64,000 nt of DNA, taken from contig PLZS01000088.1 of assembly GCA_003153555.1 (NCBI GenBank), forward strand, positions 21,180 through 85,179. The letters run 5' to 3'. The notes under the pieces were generated by a model, which worked only from the letters and a program-made list of their open reading frames with translations, searched no databases and was not told the origin of the DNA. Each line of letters starts with the position of its first letter. The stretch's first letter is position 1. The position numbers and the translations under genes are program-made. The DNA comes from Candidatus Melainabacteria bacterium. Its GTDB lineage: Bacteria; Cyanobacteriota; Vampirovibrionia; Obscuribacterales; Obscuribacteraceae. Shown in pieces: positions 48,021 to 63,707 of this stretch.

Positions 48021-48040
48021 AATCAACCGTTAACGGTTTG
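48021..48040. repeat. AATCAACCGTTAACGGTTTG palindromic repeat-family copy
   Basis: Core AACCGTTAACGGTT perfectly self-complementary. Confidence 0.72.
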
Positions 48041-50595: not shown

Positions 50596-50937
50596 CTAGC
50601 TTCCGCGATAAGTTGAATAGCCGAACGGACTGAGAAGTAGCGGCACGTGAAAGTGCTGAGTCGGATCTTTGACTTCAAAAGCCACAGTCACGTGCGGATA
50701 GAATCCAGGCTCATCCTGATTCGCATAGTAGCTGTGTGTGTCGAATGTGAGTCTATATGTGCCTGCGATCAGATGGTAGGCGTCAGATAAAAGATCTGTT
50801 AATCGACCGTCAAAATTAGTTTGGCCGGAGGCGATTTCATCCCAAATGCCCTCGGTTTGGAATTCCAAAGTTACTTTTATTCCACTGCCCGGCCGCCCTT
50901 TGGCAGTATCCAATACGTGTGTAGTAATGCTGCTCAT
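50596..50937 (-). CDS. uraH: 5-hydroxyisourate hydrolase (transthyretin-like)
   Basis: THVLDTAKGRPGSGIKVTLE, C-terminal YSTYRGS. Confidence 0.95.
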   Translation of the reverse strand: MSSITTHVLDTAKGRPGSGIKVTLEFQTEGIWDEIASGQTNFDGRLTDLLSDAYHLIAGTYRLTFDTHSYYANQDEPGFYPHVTVAFEVKDPTQHFHVPLLLSPFGYSTYRGS

Positions 50938-51435
50938 TTATAGTTTTTCCAATCTCAGGTGGGTAATTTTCTTTTGTTCTTCAGCTGCAATAGGCAACTC
51001 TGTTTCGGTGCTGTGTTCCAATCTTGCATTGAGTATCGATAACATCTCATTGGCTGTTTTACCAGTGGCGCAAACGATAAAAATGTAGCCAAATTTTCGC
51101 AAATATTCCTCGTTGCCAGAGGCGAGATTTTGCCCAACTTCGTCTGAAATCCCTTCTACACCTGACTGTTCATTTTGAGCCCAGTTCTTTGTGGCATTGT
51201 ATTTTTCTTTCAGACTCTTCAGATCGCCAATCTTCGGATGAGCGGCGAAAGCCTCCAACCAATCCAACCGCGTCATCTCGCTAAAGAAATGATCGGCGCG
51301 CTTTGACAGCTCCTCATCGTTGCTAAAGGGTCGAGCGCGCGCCATATCTCGTGACCACCGACCACAACCACAACACTTCAGGAAGACTTCCGTAGCGTCG
51401 TTAACACTAAGTTCGTTGATAAGCTTTAAGTTCAT
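50938..51435 (-). CDS. uraD: OHCU decarboxylase
   Basis: WLEAFAAHPKIGDLKSLK, EQSGVEG, FGYIFIVCATGKTANEMLSILNARL. Confidence 0.95.
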   Translation of the reverse strand: MNLKLINELSVNDATEVFLKCCGCGRWSRDMARARPFSNDEELSKRADHFFSEMTRLDWLEAFAAHPKIGDLKSLKEKYNATKNWAQNEQSGVEGISDEVGQNLASGNEEYLRKFGYIFIVCATGKTANEMLSILNARLEHSTETELPIAAEEQKKITHLRLEKL

Positions 51436-52483
51436 CGGTCTCTTTACGACTAGGATCTACCGGCGTTGAAGGCACCACTGTGCACCAGGCGCGGAATCTA
51501 CTGATGCCACCATCGGGTACGATGTTCAGACGGAGATGCGTCCAAGGACCTTCGGCCAAAATTTCCTTTTCAAAGAAATGTCTGTTATCAGCTTGAAGCT
51601 TTGTCTGCGGCACTACCTTAGTCCACTCAAAGCCGGACGCATTGAGATTATTCATTTCTGCGCCAGGAGCATAACAAGCATCGATCCAACAAGAATCCGG
51701 GAAATTACCCTTGTAGTGTTTGGTATCGACCTCAATTTTTTGCAAAAGTCCAGGCTTAGCTAATTGGATAACTGACCAATCGTGTCCTTGATCTCTGCGT
51801 CGTCGAGTTTCCCAGCCATCGCCCATATTGGCTCCCTGTCCGGGCATGATCATGTTGTTTTTGTTGCCAAAGAACATATCATTGCAAGCGATGACACTGC
51901 CGCCATTTTCAACGGCTGCAAGATCGACCTGTTCGTCTCGAGGACATGCAAGCCAATCTTTCTCAACGGTACCGTAAACCTTCAAGCGGGCAACGCCGCC
52001 ATCAGGATATATATTGAGCCGAATATGCGTCCAGCGATTGGGGTTCAAGACTGCGAAAATGTTTTGTGCTCCCTGCTTGAGAGGCGATTTAGGGAGGATC
52101 TGATGCCAGTCAGCTTCGGACAATTTGTCGACTGGAACGTCCTTATCTACGTACAGGGCATCGATGGAAGCATAGGGTGGATGATTACCCAAAAAGTTGT
52201 TTGTGTCGATGTCGACTCCTTCGATCACTCCCGCTGTGCCCAGCTTTAAAATGCACCAATCGTAACCTGGCACCCTCTTGCGACGAGTCTCCCAGCCATC
52301 CATCCATTTGCCACGATCCGTGTACTTGTCGTCGATGTACACACCTCGGCCCGGCTTGATCAGATTTTCTTTTTCAGCAAAAAATTCATCATTAGCAATT
52401 AAAACTTTGCCGCCCAATTTTTCTGAAGCAAGGTCGACAAACCCACTAAAAACAGCCGCTCCGAGATCGAAATTCCTTTCCAT
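51407..52483 (-). CDS. alc: Allantoicase
   Basis: Duplicated domain GWETRRKRVPGYDWCILKLG / GWETRRRRDQGHDWSVIQLA, WTHIRLNIYPDGGVARLKVYG. Confidence 0.96.
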   Translation of the reverse strand: MERNFDLGAAVFSGFVDLASEKLGGKVLIANDEFFAEKENLIKPGRGVYIDDKYTDRGKWMDGWETRRKRVPGYDWCILKLGTAGVIEGVDIDTNNFLGNHPPYASIDALYVDKDVPVDKLSEADWHQILPKSPLKQGAQNIFAVLNPNRWTHIRLNIYPDGGVARLKVYGTVEKDWLACPRDEQVDLAAVENGGSVIACNDMFFGNKNNMIMPGQGANMGDGWETRRRRDQGHDWSVIQLAKPGLLQKIEVDTKHYKGNFPDSCWIDACYAPGAEMNNLNASGFEWTKVVPQTKLQADNRHFFEKEILAEGPWTHLRLNIVPDGGISRFRAWCTVVPSTPVDPSRKETDELKAYQRT

Positions 52484-53851
52484 TTATTTTTTACTCTCCA
52501 CGCGTTCTTTCAATAAAAACTTTCCGATTGGTGCTGATGAAAATTTGCCGTTATCGAATACCAAATGTCCTCTGACAAACGTTTTTTCGACCAGACCGAA
52601 AAGCTGCATGCCATCATAAGGCGTTACTTTATGACGGTGATGGATAATTGAAGCATCAATTTTTGTCGAAGCTTCAGGATTCCAGACAACAATGTCAGCA
52701 TCAGTCCCAGGCTTCAGCGAGCCTTTCGATCCAGACAGTCCAAGAAATTCAGCTGGAGCCTGACAAATCCATTTGGTCAATTGCTCAATGGAGACACCGC
52801 GCTTTTTTGCCTGTGTCCAGACCGTTGGTAGCACAAACTGCAGTCCAGATATTCCGCCCCAGGCTTTTTGCAAATTGCCTTCCGATAAAAATTTGAGGCT
52901 TGGAGCGCAAGGAGAGTGGTCCGATACTACAAAATCAATCGTTCCATCCAACAATGCTTGCCAAAGTTTCTCTCTGTTTTCGCGCTCGCGAATCGGTGGC
53001 GCACACTTAAATCGTGGGTCGCCATCAGCGATTTCTTCAGAGGCAAAAGTAAGATAGTGTGGGCAAGTTTCTACAGATAAATTGGTCTTGGACGCTTTAG
53101 CTTTTTGGATCGCACTGATGGCGTCGGATGATGACAGGTGAACAATATGAACCGGGCAGTTATGCTTTTGACCAAGTCGAATAATCAAGTCGATGGCGTC
53201 ATTCTCCCAGCGTCTAGGTCGGGACTTGAGAAAGGCATTGTAAGAAGACGAGTGTTCACTCCAATCTTCTGGATGCGAATCCGCGCATTCAAGTTCAGCG
53301 TGAACCAAAAGTGGAATTTTATGCTTAGCCAAAACTGGCATAGCAAGATTCAAATCAGCTTCAGTGACGTTTGGAAAATCGTCGATGCCTGAGTGAATCA
53401 AGAAACATTTGAAACCTCTCACACCAGCTTCAATCAAGGACTCTAATGAGGCAGTATTTTCGGGAACCACACCACCGTAAAATGCGCAGTCAACCGAGAG
53501 TTTACCAGAGGCAGCGGCGAGCTTCTCTTCAAGCGCATCCAGTCTGGTCGTCACAGGATTTGAGTTAAGGGGCATGTCGGCGATTGTCGTGATGCCGCCT
53601 GCAGCAGCCGCCTTGGTGGCTGTTTCAAAACCTTCCCATTCGGTTCGGCCAGGCTCATTGACGTGTACATGGCTGTCGACCAAACCGGGCATCACAACCG
53701 AGTTCCCTACCTCATGAACTGTAATGCCAGCTGGTATTTTGTCTGCTGAAACCATGTCAAATATCAAGCCATCTTTGACAAGAAGGCAACCTGCTCTGAT
53801 ACCATCTGTAGTGACGACGCGGTTGCTTGAAATGCCAAATATAGAAGTCAT
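52484..53851 (-). CDS. allB: Allantoinase
   Basis: VMPGLVDSHVHVNEPGRTEWEGFETATKAAAAGGITTIADMPLN, VETCPHYL, DFVVSDHSPC. Confidence 0.96.
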   Translation of the reverse strand: MTSIFGISSNRVVTTDGIRAGCLLVKDGLIFDMVSADKIPAGITVHEVGNSVVMPGLVDSHVHVNEPGRTEWEGFETATKAAAAGGITTIADMPLNSNPVTTRLDALEEKLAAASGKLSVDCAFYGGVVPENTASLESLIEAGVRGFKCFLIHSGIDDFPNVTEADLNLAMPVLAKHKIPLLVHAELECADSHPEDWSEHSSSYNAFLKSRPRRWENDAIDLIIRLGQKHNCPVHIVHLSSSDAISAIQKAKASKTNLSVETCPHYLTFASEEIADGDPRFKCAPPIRERENREKLWQALLDGTIDFVVSDHSPCAPSLKFLSEGNLQKAWGGISGLQFVLPTVWTQAKKRGVSIEQLTKWICQAPAEFLGLSGSKGSLKPGTDADIVVWNPEASTKIDASIIHHRHKVTPYDGMQLFGLVEKTFVRGHLVFDNGKFSSAPIGKFLLKERVESKK

Positions 53852-54099
53852 TCTTGACCTGCGGTTGCTCGTATAGAAGCTTTTAGTCAGCTCCGTAAGA
53901 AGCTGCCGTGTGATTTAAGCGTCATTATTGTCTCATATCGGCAGTCAGGCGCTACCAGACAGGACAAATTATCGTAATTTCATAATACTTTGCACGTTCC
54001 TGAGACTCTCAATTTCGGGATCATTTGGCTCGGTAAACAGATTCTTCCCTGCCGATGGTCGTATAATCTTGAATTCAATAGCAGTATGGAGATGCCGAC

Positions 54100-54990
54100 A
54101 TGAGCGGGTCAGATCAACGCACCAATATAGCGCAGGATGAACGTACCGCAGGTGTCTTAGTCCAAAACGCGTATGGGAAATCTAAGGTCAGATTGACTAA
54201 AGTAACGCGCTCGGAAGATCGACATATATTCAAAGAAATTTGTGTCGATATTCAGCTACAAGGGGATTTTGAGCGCACTTATACAGTCGGTGACAACAGC
54301 CAAGTGGTCGCCACAGACTCAATGAAAAATCTGGTTTACGTGCTTGCTAGTAACCATCCGCTTGAGGATATCGAATCATTCGGCAAGAGTTTGGCAGAGC
54401 ACATTTTGACAACATACAAGCATGTACGCAGCGTCGACGTTAGGCTCGTCGAAGAATTATGGCATCGCATTTTGGTCGATGGAAAGCCTCATGCGCATGC
54501 ATTCTTTGGCGCCGGGACTGAAAAACGCGTAGCTGAAATTAAAGCAACGCAGCAGTCGATCGAGATCAAGTCGGGAATTGAGGCTCTGAAGTTAGTCAAA
54601 ACAACTGACTCTGAATTCTGGGGGTTTATCAGAGACAAGCACACGACGTTACCTGACGTCAAAGATCGCATTTTCGGGACAAGTGTCTCTGTACACTGGT
54701 TGTATCTAAGTGGAAATCCGGATTTCCAAAAAGCTTATGACACCGTACGAAACGTGGTTCTTGAGTGTTTTGCCACACATCGAAGCCTTGCCGTTCAACA
54801 TACCATGAATGAAATTGGCCAAGTGGCGTTGGCTCGGGTACCTGATATTCGAGAAATCTCTATCGTTATGCCGAACGAGCATCGCATTCCATTCAATCTG
54901 GAACCATTTGCTCTAGAGAATAAAAACGAAATATTCATCACTACTGATCAACCCTATGGACTAATCTCAGCAACGCTGAAGCGCGTCTAA
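54100..54990 (+). CDS. uox: Uricase (cofactor-independent urate oxidase)
   Basis: NAYGKSKVRLTKV, YTVGDNSQVVATDSMKNLVYVLA, PNEHRIPFNL. Confidence 0.95.
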   Translation: MSGSDQRTNIAQDERTAGVLVQNAYGKSKVRLTKVTRSEDRHIFKEICVDIQLQGDFERTYTVGDNSQVVATDSMKNLVYVLASNHPLEDIESFGKSLAEHILTTYKHVRSVDVRLVEELWHRILVDGKPHAHAFFGAGTEKRVAEIKATQQSIEIKSGIEALKLVKTTDSEFWGFIRDKHTTLPDVKDRIFGTSVSVHWLYLSGNPDFQKAYDTVRNVVLECFATHRSLAVQHTMNEIGQVALARVPDIREISIVMPNEHRIPFNLEPFALENKNEIFITTDQPYGLISATLKRV

Positions 54991-55107
54991 GCATGGCTTC
55001 GATCACTTAGCGCGCTAGTCAGTGCAGCATCGTATTCATAAATTGCTTTCTCGTTCCGATGCAATTGCTGACAAATGTCATGTCGCTCAGCTTTGAGCGC
55101 ACTTGTT

Positions 55108-56445
55108 CTACACAAGCTTTTTAGGTAAGTCTAATCGTTGAACAGCACCTACGCTGACGACTGAGACCAGGGTGAAAAATATCAACAAGGCAAATGCACC
55201 AGCGAAGTTGCCTGTTCTTGCGGCTATCATGCCTGTTAGAGCAGGCGCCATTATCGAAGCAATGGCAGAGCAACAGTTCATAATCCCCTGGCTCGTGGCA
55301 GCGCGGTCCTTAGCGAGATCGCAGTTAATGGCGTAGAAAGCAGCGTTGGGCATCATACCGAAACCCACACCCAGCGAAATGAAAATCATTGATACCGACA
55401 ATGAAGGACTGAACAAGAGCGGTACGTATGACAAGCCCGATATCAGCTGACAGATACAGATCAAATATGAACGTGAAATTTGCTTGCTTCCGGTTTTGAT
55501 CCACAACCAGTCCGACAAGTAGCCTGCCACCGGCAGTAGTATCGCTGCAGTTAGCCAGGGAGCGATCAAAAGATAGCCAGCTTCTTTGAGTTGGACGCCG
55601 TGAGCGTGTTCCAAATATCCTGGAAGCCAGGTAAGAGCGAAGAAGAGTGAATAGCCAAAGGCGAAATAGGCAATGTTGTTTGAAATCAAGGCCGGATTGG
55701 ACAACATTGAGCGCCACGTGGTGGCACCATCGGACCGCTCTTTATTCCGCCGGTCTTGATCGCTAATGGCCCGATCGCTAATCTGTCCTTCGCGAATGTG
55801 CTTAAGCTCGGCTTCGCTAACAAATTTGCTCGAATCCGGATAGTCTCTGAAGAAAAGAAACCAAACGCCTGCCCAAACGACTCCGAACGAAGCCATCACG
55901 ACGAACATTGCTTTCCAACCTACCGAGATGATCAAAGTTGAGATGAGGGGCGCCCCTATGGCCGACGCCATTGGTACTGCACAGAGTCCAAATCCTGTCG
56001 CTCGCACTCTCTCAGACTGCGGCAGCCAGTCAGCCACCACTCTTGTCAGCGCAGGGAAGTGTGGACCCTCTGAGAGCCCAAGAATAATGCGCAGCGCGAG
56101 CAAGGAGGGAAAACCAACTACACACCCCATCAACGCCGTACACGCAGACCACATGACCGCTGCAGCAGGCCAAACCCTGCGAGCGCCCCAACGATCCACA
56201 ATCACGCCGCCGCCCAGGGTCATGACGGCATAGCCAATTCCGAATGCCGCCAGGATATAGCCAAACTGGCTATCGTCAAGACCGAACTCACGCTTAATTG
56301 GACCGATGGCATAAGAGATTGCTGCACGGTCCATGTAATTGACAAGCGTGATCAAAAACGCCAACGCCAAAACAACATAACGATAGTGGCTAACATGAGC
56401 CGAGGTTTCCGCGACGGTTTTTTCTGAGTTATTGACTTGAAACAC
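55108..56445 (-). CDS. MFS transporter, anion:cation symporter (ACS)-like
   Basis: NYMDRAAISYAIGPIKREFGLDDSQFGYILAAFGIGYAVM, LGLSEGPHFPALTRVVADW. Confidence 0.9.
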   Translation of the reverse strand: MFQVNNSEKTVAETSAHVSHYRYVVLALAFLITLVNYMDRAAISYAIGPIKREFGLDDSQFGYILAAFGIGYAVMTLGGGVIVDRWGARRVWPAAAVMWSACTALMGCVVGFPSLLALRIILGLSEGPHFPALTRVVADWLPQSERVRATGFGLCAVPMASAIGAPLISTLIISVGWKAMFVVMASFGVVWAGVWFLFFRDYPDSSKFVSEAELKHIREGQISDRAISDQDRRNKERSDGATTWRSMLSNPALISNNIAYFAFGYSLFFALTWLPGYLEHAHGVQLKEAGYLLIAPWLTAAILLPVAGYLSDWLWIKTGSKQISRSYLICICQLISGLSYVPLLFSPSLSVSMIFISLGVGFGMMPNAAFYAINCDLAKDRAATSQGIMNCCSAIASIMAPALTGMIAARTGNFAGAFALLIFFTLVSVVSVGAVQRLDLPKKLV

Positions 56446-56559
56446 TTAGTGCATTCCTTTTACCGAACCGCTTGGCATCGATCATTGTTGACAGCTTGCG
56501 CTTGGATAATAACGCTAATGGAGCGGCTTGAGCCGCTTTGGATATTACCAGGTGAATCT

Positions 56560-56721
56560 TCAACCGTTAACGGTTCATTTTTTTCTCGCTAAAACTTCAG
56601 CCGCTGACGGTTCACTCTTTTCCCAGTTGGACTGTTTACGGTTCAGCATTTCGCGACTGAAAACTCTGTCCTTAGCTATTCACTTTTCGTGGATCGAAAA
56701 ACCAACCGTTAACGGTTCATT
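56560..56721. repeat. Degenerate tandem array of palindromic CAACCGTTAACGGTTCATTT units, ~37-bp period
   Basis: CGGTTC (or variant) at 56571, 56608, 56639, 56676 (CTATTC), 56713; spacings 37, 31, 37, 37. Confidence 0.75.
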
Positions 56722-56904
56722 TATCAGGACCAACACTGTCGTTCTCTGTAGACGGCGCGGGTGCGCCATTGGAACGCCCTTAAGAAAACAAGAGGTGCAA
56801 GAAATTCGCAAGAAACCTGCAATTGGGATGCAAGAACATCGCCCTATTATTCAGTCATCGAACCGGCGTTTACCCAGATTTTTCAGTCCTAGGAGTATTT
56901 AGCA

Positions 56905-57610
56905 ATGTCACCACCAAATTCACAAGATACGTTCAGAGAAGCTGGTCATCAAAGCATGGAAGCACTGAGAAATGTAGAACACGGATTTGCTGACTTCGGA
57001 CATGCGATATCTGATGCATGGGGTGCCGGAGTCAAGCTAAATAAAGCTGCAATTCAGGCGACTTGCGAATCCGGGCAAGCAGTGGAACATGCTTCAGGTC
57101 GAGTCGTAAACGCTGCTGGTACGGAATTGGCTAGAGAGAATAGAGAGTTGGTCCACGGCGCCCAAGACTTAGGCAGAAAGGCAATTCGTGGGGTTCATGC
57201 TGCCGGTGAGGAATTGGCTAGAGAGAATAAAGAGTTGGTCCACGGCGCCCAAGAAATTGGTCATTAAAGTAGCTCACGGGGCTCACGTTGTTGGCAAGGA
57301 ATTACAAAGAGAAGAAAGAGTAGTCGTCCATGGCGCCCAAGTACTTGGTGAGGCTGTTGCTCACGGCGTTCACGCTGGTACAAAACGAATCGGCGACCAC
57401 ATCCATGATCGACCGTTAACAGCGATTCTTGAGGGACCATTTGTAATCGTGGATGGTTTGGCTCGTGGAGGTATTGAGAAATCACACGATCAACCAGCAG
57501 CCCACAATTCCCTCACTGAAAAGCCACACGAGAAGCAAGCGCCGGTGCATAACCTACAGAAAAATAATCAGAACACTCATGTATTGCCTAGTTTAGAAAT
57601 CAAGTTTTAA
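56905..57610 (+). CDS. HGA-repeat protein, interrupted by a one-nucleotide frame change near 57265
   Basis: ORF 56905-57267 ends ...LVHGAQEIGH*; ORF frame 2 continues KVAHGAHVVGKELQREERVVVHGAQVLG..., same repeat register. Confidence 0.75.
57123..57254 (+). repeat. 87-bp-period internal repeat (45-bp near-identical segments) in the HGA-repeat gene
   Basis: 57123-57167 vs 57210-57254, one mismatch. Confidence 0.85.
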
Positions 57611-57993
57611 AACATTCCTTTCAGGCAAGCAAAGCACCCAGGTTAAGTCGTGTCCAGTGACAGTCCTTAATTAACCTGGTGTTTCGCCTTTCTGCATCCT
57701 TTATTCAGAAGGCTTTACAACCAGAATAATAGGACTGTTATGAATAATTTTTAACTGTTCGAGAAAGATCGCCTAAACGAGCGGATTGGAGTGCCTATTC
57801 CTGACACTACGCGTGGTGCATTGACTGAGTAAACCAACTACTTGAATACTTAAATAAAGCTCAGACGAGCAGTAATTAGGTACTTCGACTGGCTGATTGC
57901 TCGCAAAAGACATATTATTGAAAATTCGATCATAGCCTTCGTAATTACCAAATGCGCGACTCTAATTAGTACCAAGTACGAACTGGATAACCG

Positions 57994-58677
57994 ATGCGCA
58001 AAGGAACCATCAAACTGATGAATAGAGCGAAAAATTTGAGAAACACTGGTCGAGCGGCTGTGTGGAGCGTTTTCCTGTCTGCAGCCTGGTCGGTTCAATC
58101 TTTCAACTGTCAGCCCGTTCAAGCTCAAGAAGATTCAGGGGTTGGCTATTATTCAAATGGCTATAAACCAATTCAGAATGAACAGTTTTTGGGAATGGCT
58201 CACAATTCGCCTGAAACATCTCTGTTTCGTGCCGAGCTTGCTATAAACAGGGAGCAGTGGGGTCTCGCGGTTAAGTTTTTACGGAAATCGATGCGAGGTG
58301 ACGACGAAGACATTGATACGCACAAATATCTAGCCATCTGTCTCGAAAAACAAATGGAAGAGCAACCCGAAAGAGATCCTGCAATGTACAAAGAATGCAT
58401 TAAAGAATGGCTTATAGTGCTGCGCAATATGAAGGGTCCCGAAAAAGGTCTTAGTTGGAAAAATGGACTAAGTCCTACCAATAATAAGAAGTGGGAAGAC
58501 GAGCAAGGTGCAATGATGGCTCGTCAACACTTGACTCAACTTACCGGTTCGGAGCCGAAGCGTTGGGAAACCAACGACAAATTTGTGGCGAGAATAACCA
58601 AACCAGCCGAAGAGAATGTGCACGCGAAAGTGTTGAGCAAAAAACCTGCTGCGTTGCAATCCGGTGTCGATCAGTAA
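57994..58677 (+). CDS. Secreted TPR-like protein, unknown function
   Basis: Signal-like N-terminus; AELAINREQWGLAVKFLRKSMRGDDEDIDTHKYLAICLEKQ. Confidence 0.65.
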   Translation: MRKGTIKLMNRAKNLRNTGRAAVWSVFLSAAWSVQSFNCQPVQAQEDSGVGYYSNGYKPIQNEQFLGMAHNSPETSLFRAELAINREQWGLAVKFLRKSMRGDDEDIDTHKYLAICLEKQMEEQPERDPAMYKECIKEWLIVLRNMKGPEKGLSWKNGLSPTNNKKWEDEQGAMMARQHLTQLTGSEPKRWETNDKFVARITKPAEENVHAKVLSKKPAALQSGVDQ

Positions 58678-60129: not shown

Positions 60130-62025
60130 ATGCGGGCTAAGCACCTTTGCCATTTTTTTGCAGTTCTTGGTGCGCTGACATTAACAATTTGTCCAACAAA
60201 TGCCCTGAACGAAGACGTTGTCTTGCAGTCGATGCAAACGGAACTAAATCGATCATTTTCGAAACTGAACAAAGCAGGTGAGTCTAGACTTTATTTTCTC
60301 GCTTATCGCTTGTATGACACGCACGCGATCGAAATTTCGGCTGAGTATGGCGGTTTGATTAGTGACAAACCTGAGAGTCACAAGCGAACCTTGGATATCG
60401 AACTAAGAGTCGGATCTCCTCAAATTGATAATACCCATAAAACTAGGGGCGGTGGACCTCGCATGGGAAGCGGCGATTACAGCTCGCGATCCGGCGTACC
60501 ACTGGATGACGATGAAGCTGCTCTTCGCACCACTTTGTGGGAACGAACAGATGCCGCCTTCAAATCTGCGCAAGCGGATTACCAAAAGGTTTTGACGAAT
60601 CGAGACGTTCGAATTGCAGAAGAAGACAATTCGGACGATTTTTCTAAAGAAAAGCCCGCCGTTTACTATGGCAAACCGCTAGAAATGAATGTTGATCGCA
60701 CCGCATGGGAGTCGCGTCTTCGTCGACTGTCCGCTATTTATCGAACTTATCCGAACATAAAAAGTTCGATGGTGCGTTTTTCCGCAACGAAGACAAAACG
60801 CTATCTAGTAACCAGTGAAGGCACAATAATTGAAGACGAGCACGTCCAATTTCGCGTCTATACAATTGCTGAAGCAACAGCTGACGATGGAATGCGCGTT
60901 TGGTTGTACGACGGAGTAGAAGCGCCTACAAAAGTTGACCTTCCTGACGATCAAAAATTGGATCAAATGGTGCACAAAGTGGCCTCCTCAGTGGAGGCAC
61001 TGAGAGTTGCTAAAGCCGCGGAACCATTTGCCGGCCCAGCCATACTACAAGCAAAGTCTGCTGGCGTTTACTTCCATGAAATTTTTGGTCATCGCATCGA
61101 AGGTCATCGACAAAAAGATGAGGGTGAGGGCCGAACATTTACGAAACTAATTGGCAAGGAAATTATGCCGACCTTCATTACTGTTGTTGACGATCCGCTT
61201 AAGGAACGGCTTGGCACCAAAGCTTTGAACGGATTCTATCGTTATGATGATGAGGGTGTGCCGGCGCAAAGGGCTGTGCTCGTTGACAAGGGCATTCTTA
61301 AAGGTTTCTTGATGGAACGTTCACCCATCCGTGGCTTTGCTAATTCGAACGGACATGGAAGAAGTTCACCCGGCTCGAAACCAGTAGCCAGACAGGCCAA
61401 CTTAATCGTAGATTCTTCGAAACGCGTACCTTATGAAACTTTGCGCGCACAATTAGTTGCTGAAATAAAACGTCAAGGCAAGCCATATGGTTTGGTGTTC
61501 GATGAGATTGCCGGAGGCTTTACAATGACTCAGGCACTGATGCCGCAAGTGTTTAAGTTGAAACCCTTGCGCGTTTGGAGAGTCTTTCCTGATGGTCGAC
61601 CCGATGAATTATTGCGGGGCGTTGATCTTGTCGGCACTCCACTAACATCGCTTGAGCGGATCATTGGCGCCGCCGACGACGATGATGTCTTCAACGGTAC
61701 GTGTGGTGCTGAATCAGGCTGGGTGCCAGTTTCGGCAATCTCACCAAGCCTGCTCTTGCAAACAATTGAAGTCGAGCGGAATTACAAAGAGCAAGACAAG
61801 CCGCCTGTATTGCCACCACCGGACCAAGACAAACAGGCTAAGTCGAACTCCACTGCTAAGTCGAGCAGCGTGCAAACGACGCCTCTCTTAGATCGGGGTC
61901 GAAGCTCGCCAGATGGAGCGGACAGCGTATCACCAGATAAAGCGGACACTACCTCCTCAGATAGAGCGGATAGCGCATCCTCCAATCATTCGGAGAAGAC
62001 TAATGCAGCGAAGAAGCCGCAATGA
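60130..62025 (+). CDS. TldD/PmbA-family metallopeptidase with putative signal peptide
   Basis: GVYFHEIFGHRIEGHRQ (HExxxH), VVDDPLKERLGTKALNGFYRYDDEGVPAQRAVLVDKGILKGFLMERSPI. Confidence 0.9.
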   Translation: MRAKHLCHFFAVLGALTLTICPTNALNEDVVLQSMQTELNRSFSKLNKAGESRLYFLAYRLYDTHAIEISAEYGGLISDKPESHKRTLDIELRVGSPQIDNTHKTRGGGPRMGSGDYSSRSGVPLDDDEAALRTTLWERTDAAFKSAQADYQKVLTNRDVRIAEEDNSDDFSKEKPAVYYGKPLEMNVDRTAWESRLRRLSAIYRTYPNIKSSMVRFSATKTKRYLVTSEGTIIEDEHVQFRVYTIAEATADDGMRVWLYDGVEAPTKVDLPDDQKLDQMVHKVASSVEALRVAKAAEPFAGPAILQAKSAGVYFHEIFGHRIEGHRQKDEGEGRTFTKLIGKEIMPTFITVVDDPLKERLGTKALNGFYRYDDEGVPAQRAVLVDKGILKGFLMERSPIRGFANSNGHGRSSPGSKPVARQANLIVDSSKRVPYETLRAQLVAEIKRQGKPYGLVFDEIAGGFTMTQALMPQVFKLKPLRVWRVFPDGRPDELLRGVDLVGTPLTSLERIIGAADDDDVFNGTCGAESGWVPVSAISPSLLLQTIEVERNYKEQDKPPVLPPPDQDKQAKSNSTAKSSSVQTTPLLDRGRSSPDGADSVSPDKADTTSSDRADSASSNHSEKTNAAKKPQ

Positions 62026-63707
62026 AAACAATTTTTAGCACTCTGATTGCATTGTCGTCAGTTCTTGCACCTGTGAATTCGCAGTACGAAAACGTTTTCG
62101 CGGCTATGAAAGACGAGATGAATAGGTCAATTACTCGACTTAAGTTAGAGAGTCACGAAGCACCCTATTTCATCGGCTACACGGTGCATGACACCGATAC
62201 CATAAATGTGTCTGCGACATTTGGAGCCCTTACAGACAACAGCCGTGATCACGTCCGTAATCTGGCTGTAGATGTGCGCATTGGTGATTACAAACTGGAC
62301 AGCACCTCAGGTTCGTCTGACTTTGGAGACTTGTTCAGCCACACCGGCAGTTCTTCTATCAGTGTCGATAATGATTACGATACGCTGCGACGTGAGTTAT
62401 GGCTGCGAACAGATGCAGCCTACAAGCAGGCAATCGAAGGGTTGGAATCAAAAAAGACTTACTTGAAACAGAACACAGTCGAAGACCGTCCTGACTCGTT
62501 TTCTCGTGAAGCACCTGTGGTTGAACTCGAACCAGTTGCAACTTTGGATATTGACGTCGACAAATGGGCTTCGAACTTGCGAGAGCTAACAGCCGTATTT
62601 CGTAATCATCCGCTCATCCGCAGCTCACAAGCATCCCTCGGCGCCCTTGCAGACAATCATTGGTTTCTAAATTCAGAAGGATTTCGTAATCGCGTCGGCG
62701 AAAAAAGCTATGCGCTGACCATAAATGCCCAAGCACAATCTGAAGACGGCATGCATTTTGCTGATCAGGAGCTGATTCCAGCGTACTCAGAAAAAGAATT
62801 ACCCAAACTAGATGAATTAAAAAAGCGGGCCAACGAGTTGGCTAATCGGTTGGAATTGCTGGCAGCCGCTCCGAAAGTTGACGACTATCGAGGTCCCGTA
62901 TTGTTTGAAGGACAAGCCAGTGCACAGCTCTTTCATCAAGTGCTCGAGCCAAAACTAAGCAGATCTGCTAGCGATATGAAACGAATGCTTAGCACTGACA
63001 TGAGCGAAAAACTCGGGCAGAGAATATTGCCTAAGTTCATCGATGTTGTGGATGATCCAAACATCAAGACGTATGAAGGCAAGCCACTCTTTGGCTGCTA
63101 TGAGATCGACGACGAAGGATTGAAAGGGCAAAAAGTAACCCTTGTAGAAAAAGGTATTCTAAAATCACTGTGCATGAGCCGTGTACCGACCCGCGCTATT
63201 TTGCATAGCAACGGACATGCTAAACACGGTGGCAGTGCCACAAGCAACCTCTTCATCAATTCCGAGCACAAACTTTCTCCTGAAGCTCTCAAAGCTAGAC
63301 TGATCCTATTGGGCAAAGAGGATGGACTTAAAGAGGTCTACATCGCACGTCGCATCACCGGAAGCGCCAGTGACTTGGATATGTCAAATTTGCAATCATT
63401 TTTCAAAGCATTTATGTCCGGAAGTGGCGGCGTATCTTTGTATCCGCCCATCATGCTGTACAGAGTTTCTGTCGCTGATGGGCACGAAGAGCTTACCCGT
63501 GGTGGCAATTTCGCCAATATTTCTATGCGGATCTTGCGTGACATCGATGCAACCGGTAATGATGTCAAATCCTATTCAGTCCAAAACGCCCGCGAGATAA
63601 CAAGCATCGTCTCTCCTTCTGTCTTAGTGACGGAAGTGGAAATACAGAAGCCTGATAAAACGAACACTAAGCGTCCGATTTTGAAAAATCCGAACTTCGA
63701 TAAATAG
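62022..63707 (+). CDS. TldD/PmbA-family paralog lacking the HExxxH motif
   Basis: Parallel architecture (VVDDPNIKTYEGKPLFGCYEIDDEGLKGQKVTLVEKGILKSLCMSRVPT); motif region reads ASAQLFHQVLEPKLS; ATGA overlap with upstream gene. Confidence 0.87.
   Translation: MKTIFSTLIALSSVLAPVNSQYENVFAAMKDEMNRSITRLKLESHEAPYFIGYTVHDTDTINVSATFGALTDNSRDHVRNLAVDVRIGDYKLDSTSGSSDFGDLFSHTGSSSISVDNDYDTLRRELWLRTDAAYKQAIEGLESKKTYLKQNTVEDRPDSFSREAPVVELEPVATLDIDVDKWASNLRELTAVFRNHPLIRSSQASLGALADNHWFLNSEGFRNRVGEKSYALTINAQAQSEDGMHFADQELIPAYSEKELPKLDELKKRANELANRLELLAAAPKVDDYRGPVLFEGQASAQLFHQVLEPKLSRSASDMKRMLSTDMSEKLGQRILPKFIDVVDDPNIKTYEGKPLFGCYEIDDEGLKGQKVTLVEKGILKSLCMSRVPTRAILHSNGHAKHGGSATSNLFINSEHKLSPEALKARLILLGKEDGLKEVYIARRITGSASDLDMSNLQSFFKAFMSGSGGVSLYPPIMLYRVSVADGHEELTRGGNFANISMRILRDIDATGNDVKSYSVQNAREITSIVSPSVLVTEVEIQKPDKTNTKRPILKNPNFDK

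What the first reader, a model, noticed from the sequence alone, without database searches (positions are those of the whole stretch)
56905..57610. HGA-repeat protein continues across a one-base frame change at CAT-T-AAA
ORF 1 ends at TAA (57265-57267) directly after ...HGAQEIGH. Ignoring a single T (57264/57265) gives GAA ATT GGT CAT AAA GTA GCT CAC GGG GCT = EIGHKVAHGAHVVGKEL, which continues the 29-aa repeat in register for another ~115 aa. The options are a recent frameshift mutation or phase-variation state, an assembly error, or a +1 recoding site at a stop codon.
Basis: seen in the sequence. Interest (0 to 1): 0.6.

Follow-up and report, generated by a model that had tools for sequence, protein, structure and literature searches.

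The report
Repeat-protein gene broken by one base
A dispensable bacterial gene for a long, helical repeat protein carries a one-base frame break midway; the genome's only detected sister copy is intact, and nothing at the break looks like deliberate frame-switching, so this is most likely an ordinary broken gene or possibly an assembly error.

Summary
ORF 56905-57267 stops at TAA, and the next ~114 codons, in the +1 frame to 57610, belong to the same protein. Four results show it: a 69-nt DNA repeat spaced 87 then 88 nt, an in-register 29-aa repeat, coding-like codon use on both sides, and an intact 302-aa paralogue in the same genome that matches both halves (E 2e-16 and 5e-16). The paralogue ends in a near-threshold LysM domain; the window copy keeps only the last part of it. 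No other homologue was found in 53 genomes of the order, GTDB contigs, IMG/VR or plasmids. The gene sits in a variable slot between conserved neighbours: one same-genus genome carries a different ORF there, the other no gene. The break lacks a slippery codon, Shine-Dalgarno-like element, stimulatory structure or long homopolymer, whereas this organism's prfB shows a CTTTGA shift site. Conserved genes in the window show no frameshift over 46 kb (test sensitivity 67%), so a noisy assembly is unlikely, but a single local error is not excluded. Verdict: a recent one-base indel in an accessory gene (most likely), then assembly error. Recoding and phase variation are poorly supported. Ordinary.

The parts
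56796..56867 (+). conserved promoter/leader block upstream of the gene, 88% identical to the same slot in same-genus genome G001 (where it precedes a different ORF); contains a promoter-like TTGGGA-16-TATTAT at 56823-56850
   Evidence: blastn; promoter scan (a consensus match only)
56890..56907 (+). leader CTAGGAG...ATG with Shine-Dalgarno-like AGGAG; the same leader precedes the intact paralogue
   Evidence: sequence; blastn to paralogue
56905..57267 (+). 5' part of the gene (ORF1, 120 aa) ending at the premature TAA
   Evidence: paralogue match 39%, E 2.4e-16; codon log-odds
57099..57342 (+). three copies of the 69-nt core of the 87-nt (29-aa) repeat, spacing 87 then 88 nt
   Evidence: lag-29 analysis
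57264..57265 (+). site of the one-base excess (TT in CATTAAAG)
   Evidence: breakpoint scan; repeat spacing
57266..57610 (+). 3' part of the gene in the +1 frame (rest of repeat, IGDHxxDRPLTA..DGLARGG region, remnant end of a LysM-like domain, stop)
   Evidence: paralogue match 44%, E 4.6e-16; 50% over 70 aa; LysM-end remnant E 9.7e-4; codon log-odds

Best explanation
This is one accessory gene of a small lineage-restricted family. It encodes a long amphipathic-helix repeat protein (29-aa units) that, in the intact paralogue, ends in a probable peptidoglycan-binding LysM domain. In this copy a one-base gain just after the second near-identical repeat puts TAA in frame, so ordinary translation gives only the N-terminal 120 residues and the downstream part is lost. 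The copy also keeps only the end of the LysM region, which fits relaxed constraint. Shown: the one-base excess, the homology of both halves, the intact paralogue, the accessory location and the truncated LysM region. Inferred: that the base is real in the cell, that the event is recent (no further lesion downstream), and that the gene is non-functional.
For: The paralogue is uninterrupted over the homologous position and matches both halves. DNA repeat spacing is 87 then 88. Coding-like codon use is equal on both sides, so the 3' part was translated until recently. The slot is non-conserved: the flanking MFS gene (83%) and downstream gene (69-76%) are conserved in G001 and G002, but the slot holds an unrelated ORF in G001 and no gene in G002. 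No homologue was found in any other genome searched, so the gene is dispensable. The window copy has only the last ~16 residues of the LysM region. There is no recoding or phase-variation signature. No frameshift was found in 46 kb of conserved coding sequence of this window (97 of 144 planted deletions recovered), so indel noise is low. A survey of 1,106 genomes treats non-clustered, non-orphan frame transitions as indel mutation or sequencing error (PMC3711429).
Against: Read support could not be inspected; the genome is a 208-contig assembly at 86.6% completeness and 7% contamination. Tandem near-identical 69-nt repeats beside the break are a place where assemblers can slip. The downstream frame is otherwise undamaged, as an assembly error or a still-translated product would also look. 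The missing LysM half could be ancestral to this copy rather than decay.
Confidence: 0.66

Rival explanations
1. Assembly or sequencing error: the gene is intact in the organism and the consensus gained one T beside the tandem repeat.
For: Draft genome in 208 contigs; near-identical tandem repeats next to the site; the downstream frame has no other lesion and full coding character. PMC3711429 expects similarity-validated singleton frame transitions to be mostly sequencing errors.
Against: No frameshift in 46 kb of conserved coding sequence of the window, with 67% recovery of planted indels: the 95% upper bound is about 1 per 10 kb, i.e. at most ~0.07 expected in this gene. The site is not a long homopolymer (TT and AAA only).
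Confidence: 0.24
2. +1 programmed recoding at the TAA: ribosomes pause at CAT-TAA and slip forward to make the full protein.
For: The downstream frame is coding-like and undamaged. The genome's prfB has a +1 shift site at CTTTGA, so +1 shifting probably exists in this organism.
Against: CAT to ATT re-pairing needs two mismatches in the P site. There is no purine-rich Shine-Dalgarno-like element within 25 nt upstream. The 3' RNA folds worse than shuffles (z +1.34). The stop is UAA followed by A, not the UGAC context of prfB (PMC12421855). The paralogue needs no shift and there is no second example.
Confidence: 0.03
3. Phase variation: a reversible frame switch turns the 3' part on and off.
For: Accessory gene with a repeat architecture; surface or cell-wall association possible through LysM in the paralogue.
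Against: There is no homopolymer of 6 or more and no short tandem repeat at the break. Recombination between 87-nt units changes length in frame and cannot by itself switch frame.
Confidence: 0.02
4. Two functional products: ORF1 is a finished 120-aa helical protein and the downstream ORF is translated separately by reinitiation.
For: The +1 frame has GTG/ATG/TTG codons overlapping the end of ORF1 (57188, 57197, 57206, 57257) and ATT AAA overlapping the stop.
Against: The overlapping part of the +1 frame is not coding-like (-1.1 bits against +10.5 for frame 0). No Shine-Dalgarno precedes these starts by eye. There is no ATG/GTG/TTG in that frame between the stop and 57449. The paralogue is one protein.
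Confidence: 0.05

Closest known systems
Own-genome paralogue G000:C132:66456-67361 (302 aa, unnamed family)
   Same: same leader, N-terminus (xPPxSQxxF...GFAD...WGAG), 29-aa-type helical repeats, IGDHxxDRPLTAxLEG...DGLARGG region and LPxLEI end
   Different: uninterrupted, has one more repeat block and a C-terminal LysM-like domain
prfB (release factor 2) programmed +1 frameshift
   Same: frame change of +1 at an in-frame stop codon
   Different: prfB uses CTTTGA with a purine-rich upstream element in most bacteria and is conserved; here CATTAAA, no element, no conservation
Ordinary singleton frameshifted genes/pseudogenes (as in the GeneTack survey, PMC3711429)
   Same: single indel in an otherwise intact, non-conserved gene with an intact relative and no recoding signature
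   Different: nothing notable except that the break adjoins a tandem repeat

Membership tests
Frameshifted pseudogene / null allele | interrupted relative to an intact homologue | tested here: met
   intact paralogue spans the break in one frame
Frameshifted pseudogene / null allele | further signs of relaxed constraint or dispensability | tested here: met
   slot without a homologue in both same-genus genomes; LysM region cut short; absent from 52 other genomes of the order
Frameshifted pseudogene / null allele | the indel is real in the cell's DNA | not testable with these tools
   no reads or second assembly of the species available
Programmed +1 frameshift | slippery P-site codon that re-pairs in the +1 frame | tested here: not met
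   CAT to ATT; sequence, compared with CTTTGA of the genome's own prfB
Programmed +1 frameshift | stimulatory element (Shine-Dalgarno-like or RNA structure) | tested here: not met
   none within 25 nt; fold z +1.34 and +0.48
Programmed +1 frameshift | frame break conserved in orthologues | tested here: inconclusive
   the only relative found is a paralogue, and it is in frame; no orthologue exists to compare
Phase-variable contingency gene | homopolymer or short tandem repeat at the switch | tested here: not met
LysM-domain protein | complete LysM domain | tested here: not met
   paralogue: Pfam PF01476 E 6.7e-4, 20.0 bits, just under the cut-off of 20.9; window copy: no Pfam match, only the last ~16 residues kept

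The most novel reading that the evidence does not exclude
A new kind of stop-codon +1 recoding (CAT-TAA-A) that lets this helical repeat protein be made both short and full length, without any of the known stimulatory elements.
Probability: 0.02. Interest if true: 0.7.

Novelty: new member of a known kind. Interest (0 to 1): 0.14.

Why it matters
Mainly for annotation: the two ORFs should be recorded as one interrupted gene, not as two genes. If the base is real, the locus shows an accessory gene being lost from a variable slot while its intact paralogue persists elsewhere in the genome. A recoding reading would matter for translation biology, but the evidence does not favour it.

Tried and rejected
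Homologue searches with the two-member profile in GTDB contigs (two scans), IMG/VR and 53 genomes of the order, and with the read-through protein in plasmids, found nothing beyond the paralogue, so no orthologue of the break could be compared. A weak hit in G005 (E 2.5e-5, 30%, in an 853-aa frame) was not seen with the profile and was set aside as a likely helical-composition match. Pfam and NCBIfam and PDB gave nothing for the read-through protein. AlphaFold2 on the single sequence gives one helix, residues 6-166, with pTM 0.29; this is too weak for a fold search, so none was run. An RNA-family scan around the locus found nothing.

Full report
Observation. The window holds an ORF at 56905-57267 ending at TAA (57265-57267), and an overlapping +1 frame open to the stop ending at 57610. 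Four independent results show that the two belong together. The DNA repeat finder lists three copies of a 69-nt unit at 57099, 57186 and 57274, spaced 87 and then 88 nt. Similarity at a lag of 29 residues continues across the junction (score 104, 0 of 20,000 shuffles; other frames -10 and 9). Codon log-odds are +29.1 bits over 120 codons upstream and +29.0 bits over 114 codons downstream, while every other frame of those two stretches is negative. A paralogue elsewhere in the same genome matches both pieces (E 2.4e-16 and 4.6e-16). Scanning the position of the break, the alignment with the paralogue reaches its plateau from 57235 and the lag-29 register peaks at 57265.

What the gene is. The paralogue, G000:C132:66456-67361, is a single open frame of 302 aa. 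It shares the leader CTAGGAGTA..ATG, the N-terminus, the repeat region, an IGDHxxDRPLTAxLEG...DGLARGG region and the very end LPxLEI. It carries a C-terminal LysM-like domain (PF01476, E 6.7e-4, 20.0 bits, just below the 20.9 cut-off). The window copy has one repeat block fewer and keeps only about 16 residues of the LysM end. The repeat is strictly 29 aa (lag peaks 29 and 58), hydrophobicity has a period of 3.65 residues and AlphaFold2 draws residues 6-166 as one helix, though with a poor overall score (pTM 0.29). A long amphipathic helix is therefore the likely form; a cell-wall role is inferred only from the LysM of the paralogue. No signal peptide is evident by eye; this was not tested.

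Where it sits. The flanking MFS gene (55108-56445, minus strand) and the 227-aa gene at 57994 are conserved in the two same-genus genomes at 83% and 69-76%. The gene between them is not: G002 has about 340 bp and no gene, and G001 has a different 285-aa ORF behind a promoter-side block that is 88% identical to window 56796-56867. No other homologue was found in 53 genomes of the order, in the scanned GTDB contigs, IMG/VR or plasmids. The gene is thus accessory.

Mechanism. For a real indel: the gene is dispensable, a second reduction (LysM) is present, and the site is a TT pair just after a near-identical repeat. For assembly error: draft assembly and a local repeat. I tested the error rate by looking for frameshifts in window genes against their same-genus relatives. 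There are none in 46 kb, and 97 of 144 planted one-base deletions were recovered by the same test. The upper bound is about one per 10 kb, so at most 0.07 expected in this gene. This lowers but does not remove assembly error, because reads were not available.

Recoding. The genome's own prfB (G000:C161, L050) is interrupted at CTTTGA and continues in the +1 frame, so a +1 site of the known type can be recognised here. The site in question has none of its features. His-tRNA on CAT would face ATT with two mismatches (from base-pairing rules). There is no purine-rich element within 25 nt, the downstream RNA is less structured than shuffles, and the stop context is UAAA rather than UGAC (PMC12421855). 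Caution: this genome's prfB site itself lacks the AGGGGG-like element and the C after TGA, so those two features are weak criteria in this organism; the slippery codon is the stronger one. Phase variation has no tract. Separate translation of the second ORF has no suitable start: the overlapping stretch is not coding-like in that frame, and there is no ATG, GTG or TTG between the stop and 57449.

Comparison. A survey of frame transitions in 1,106 genomes assigns non-conserved, non-orphan singletons to indel mutation or sequencing error (PMC3711429). This case fits that class. The taxon is not named by the tools; family structure and genome sizes suggest a non-photosynthetic cyanobacterial lineage (inference only).

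Noticed in passing
window 56561-56722: Array of palindromes AACCGTTAACGGTT (two exact, two degenerate copies) between the MFS gene and the broken gene. The exact 16-mer AACCGTTAACGGTTCA occurs only twice in the 7.8-Mb genome, both here, and not in the two same-genus genomes; it looks like an operator array. Degenerate copies also lie at 1479-1496 and 48023-48040.
   Followed up: partly
window 56446-57993; L030 5834-7290; L031 5841-6290: Variable gene slot: a conserved promoter-side block is followed by different genes in G000 and G001; G002 has no gene there.
   Followed up: partly
L050 (G000:C161:1090-2130, minus strand): prfB needs a +1 shift at CTTTGAG but lacks the AGGGGG-like element and has G, not C, after TGA, unlike the consensus in PMC12421855.
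   Followed up: partly
window 50599-56445: Likely purine-degradation cluster: uricase (PF01014), an amidohydrolase resembling allantoinase and an allantoicase-like gene (both by eye) and an MFS transporter, conserved in same-genus genomes.
   Followed up: no
window 60130-63707: Adjacent TldD/PmbA-type pair, the first with a low-complexity tail (tandem repeat 61910-61982); the pair is conserved in relatives.
   Followed up: no
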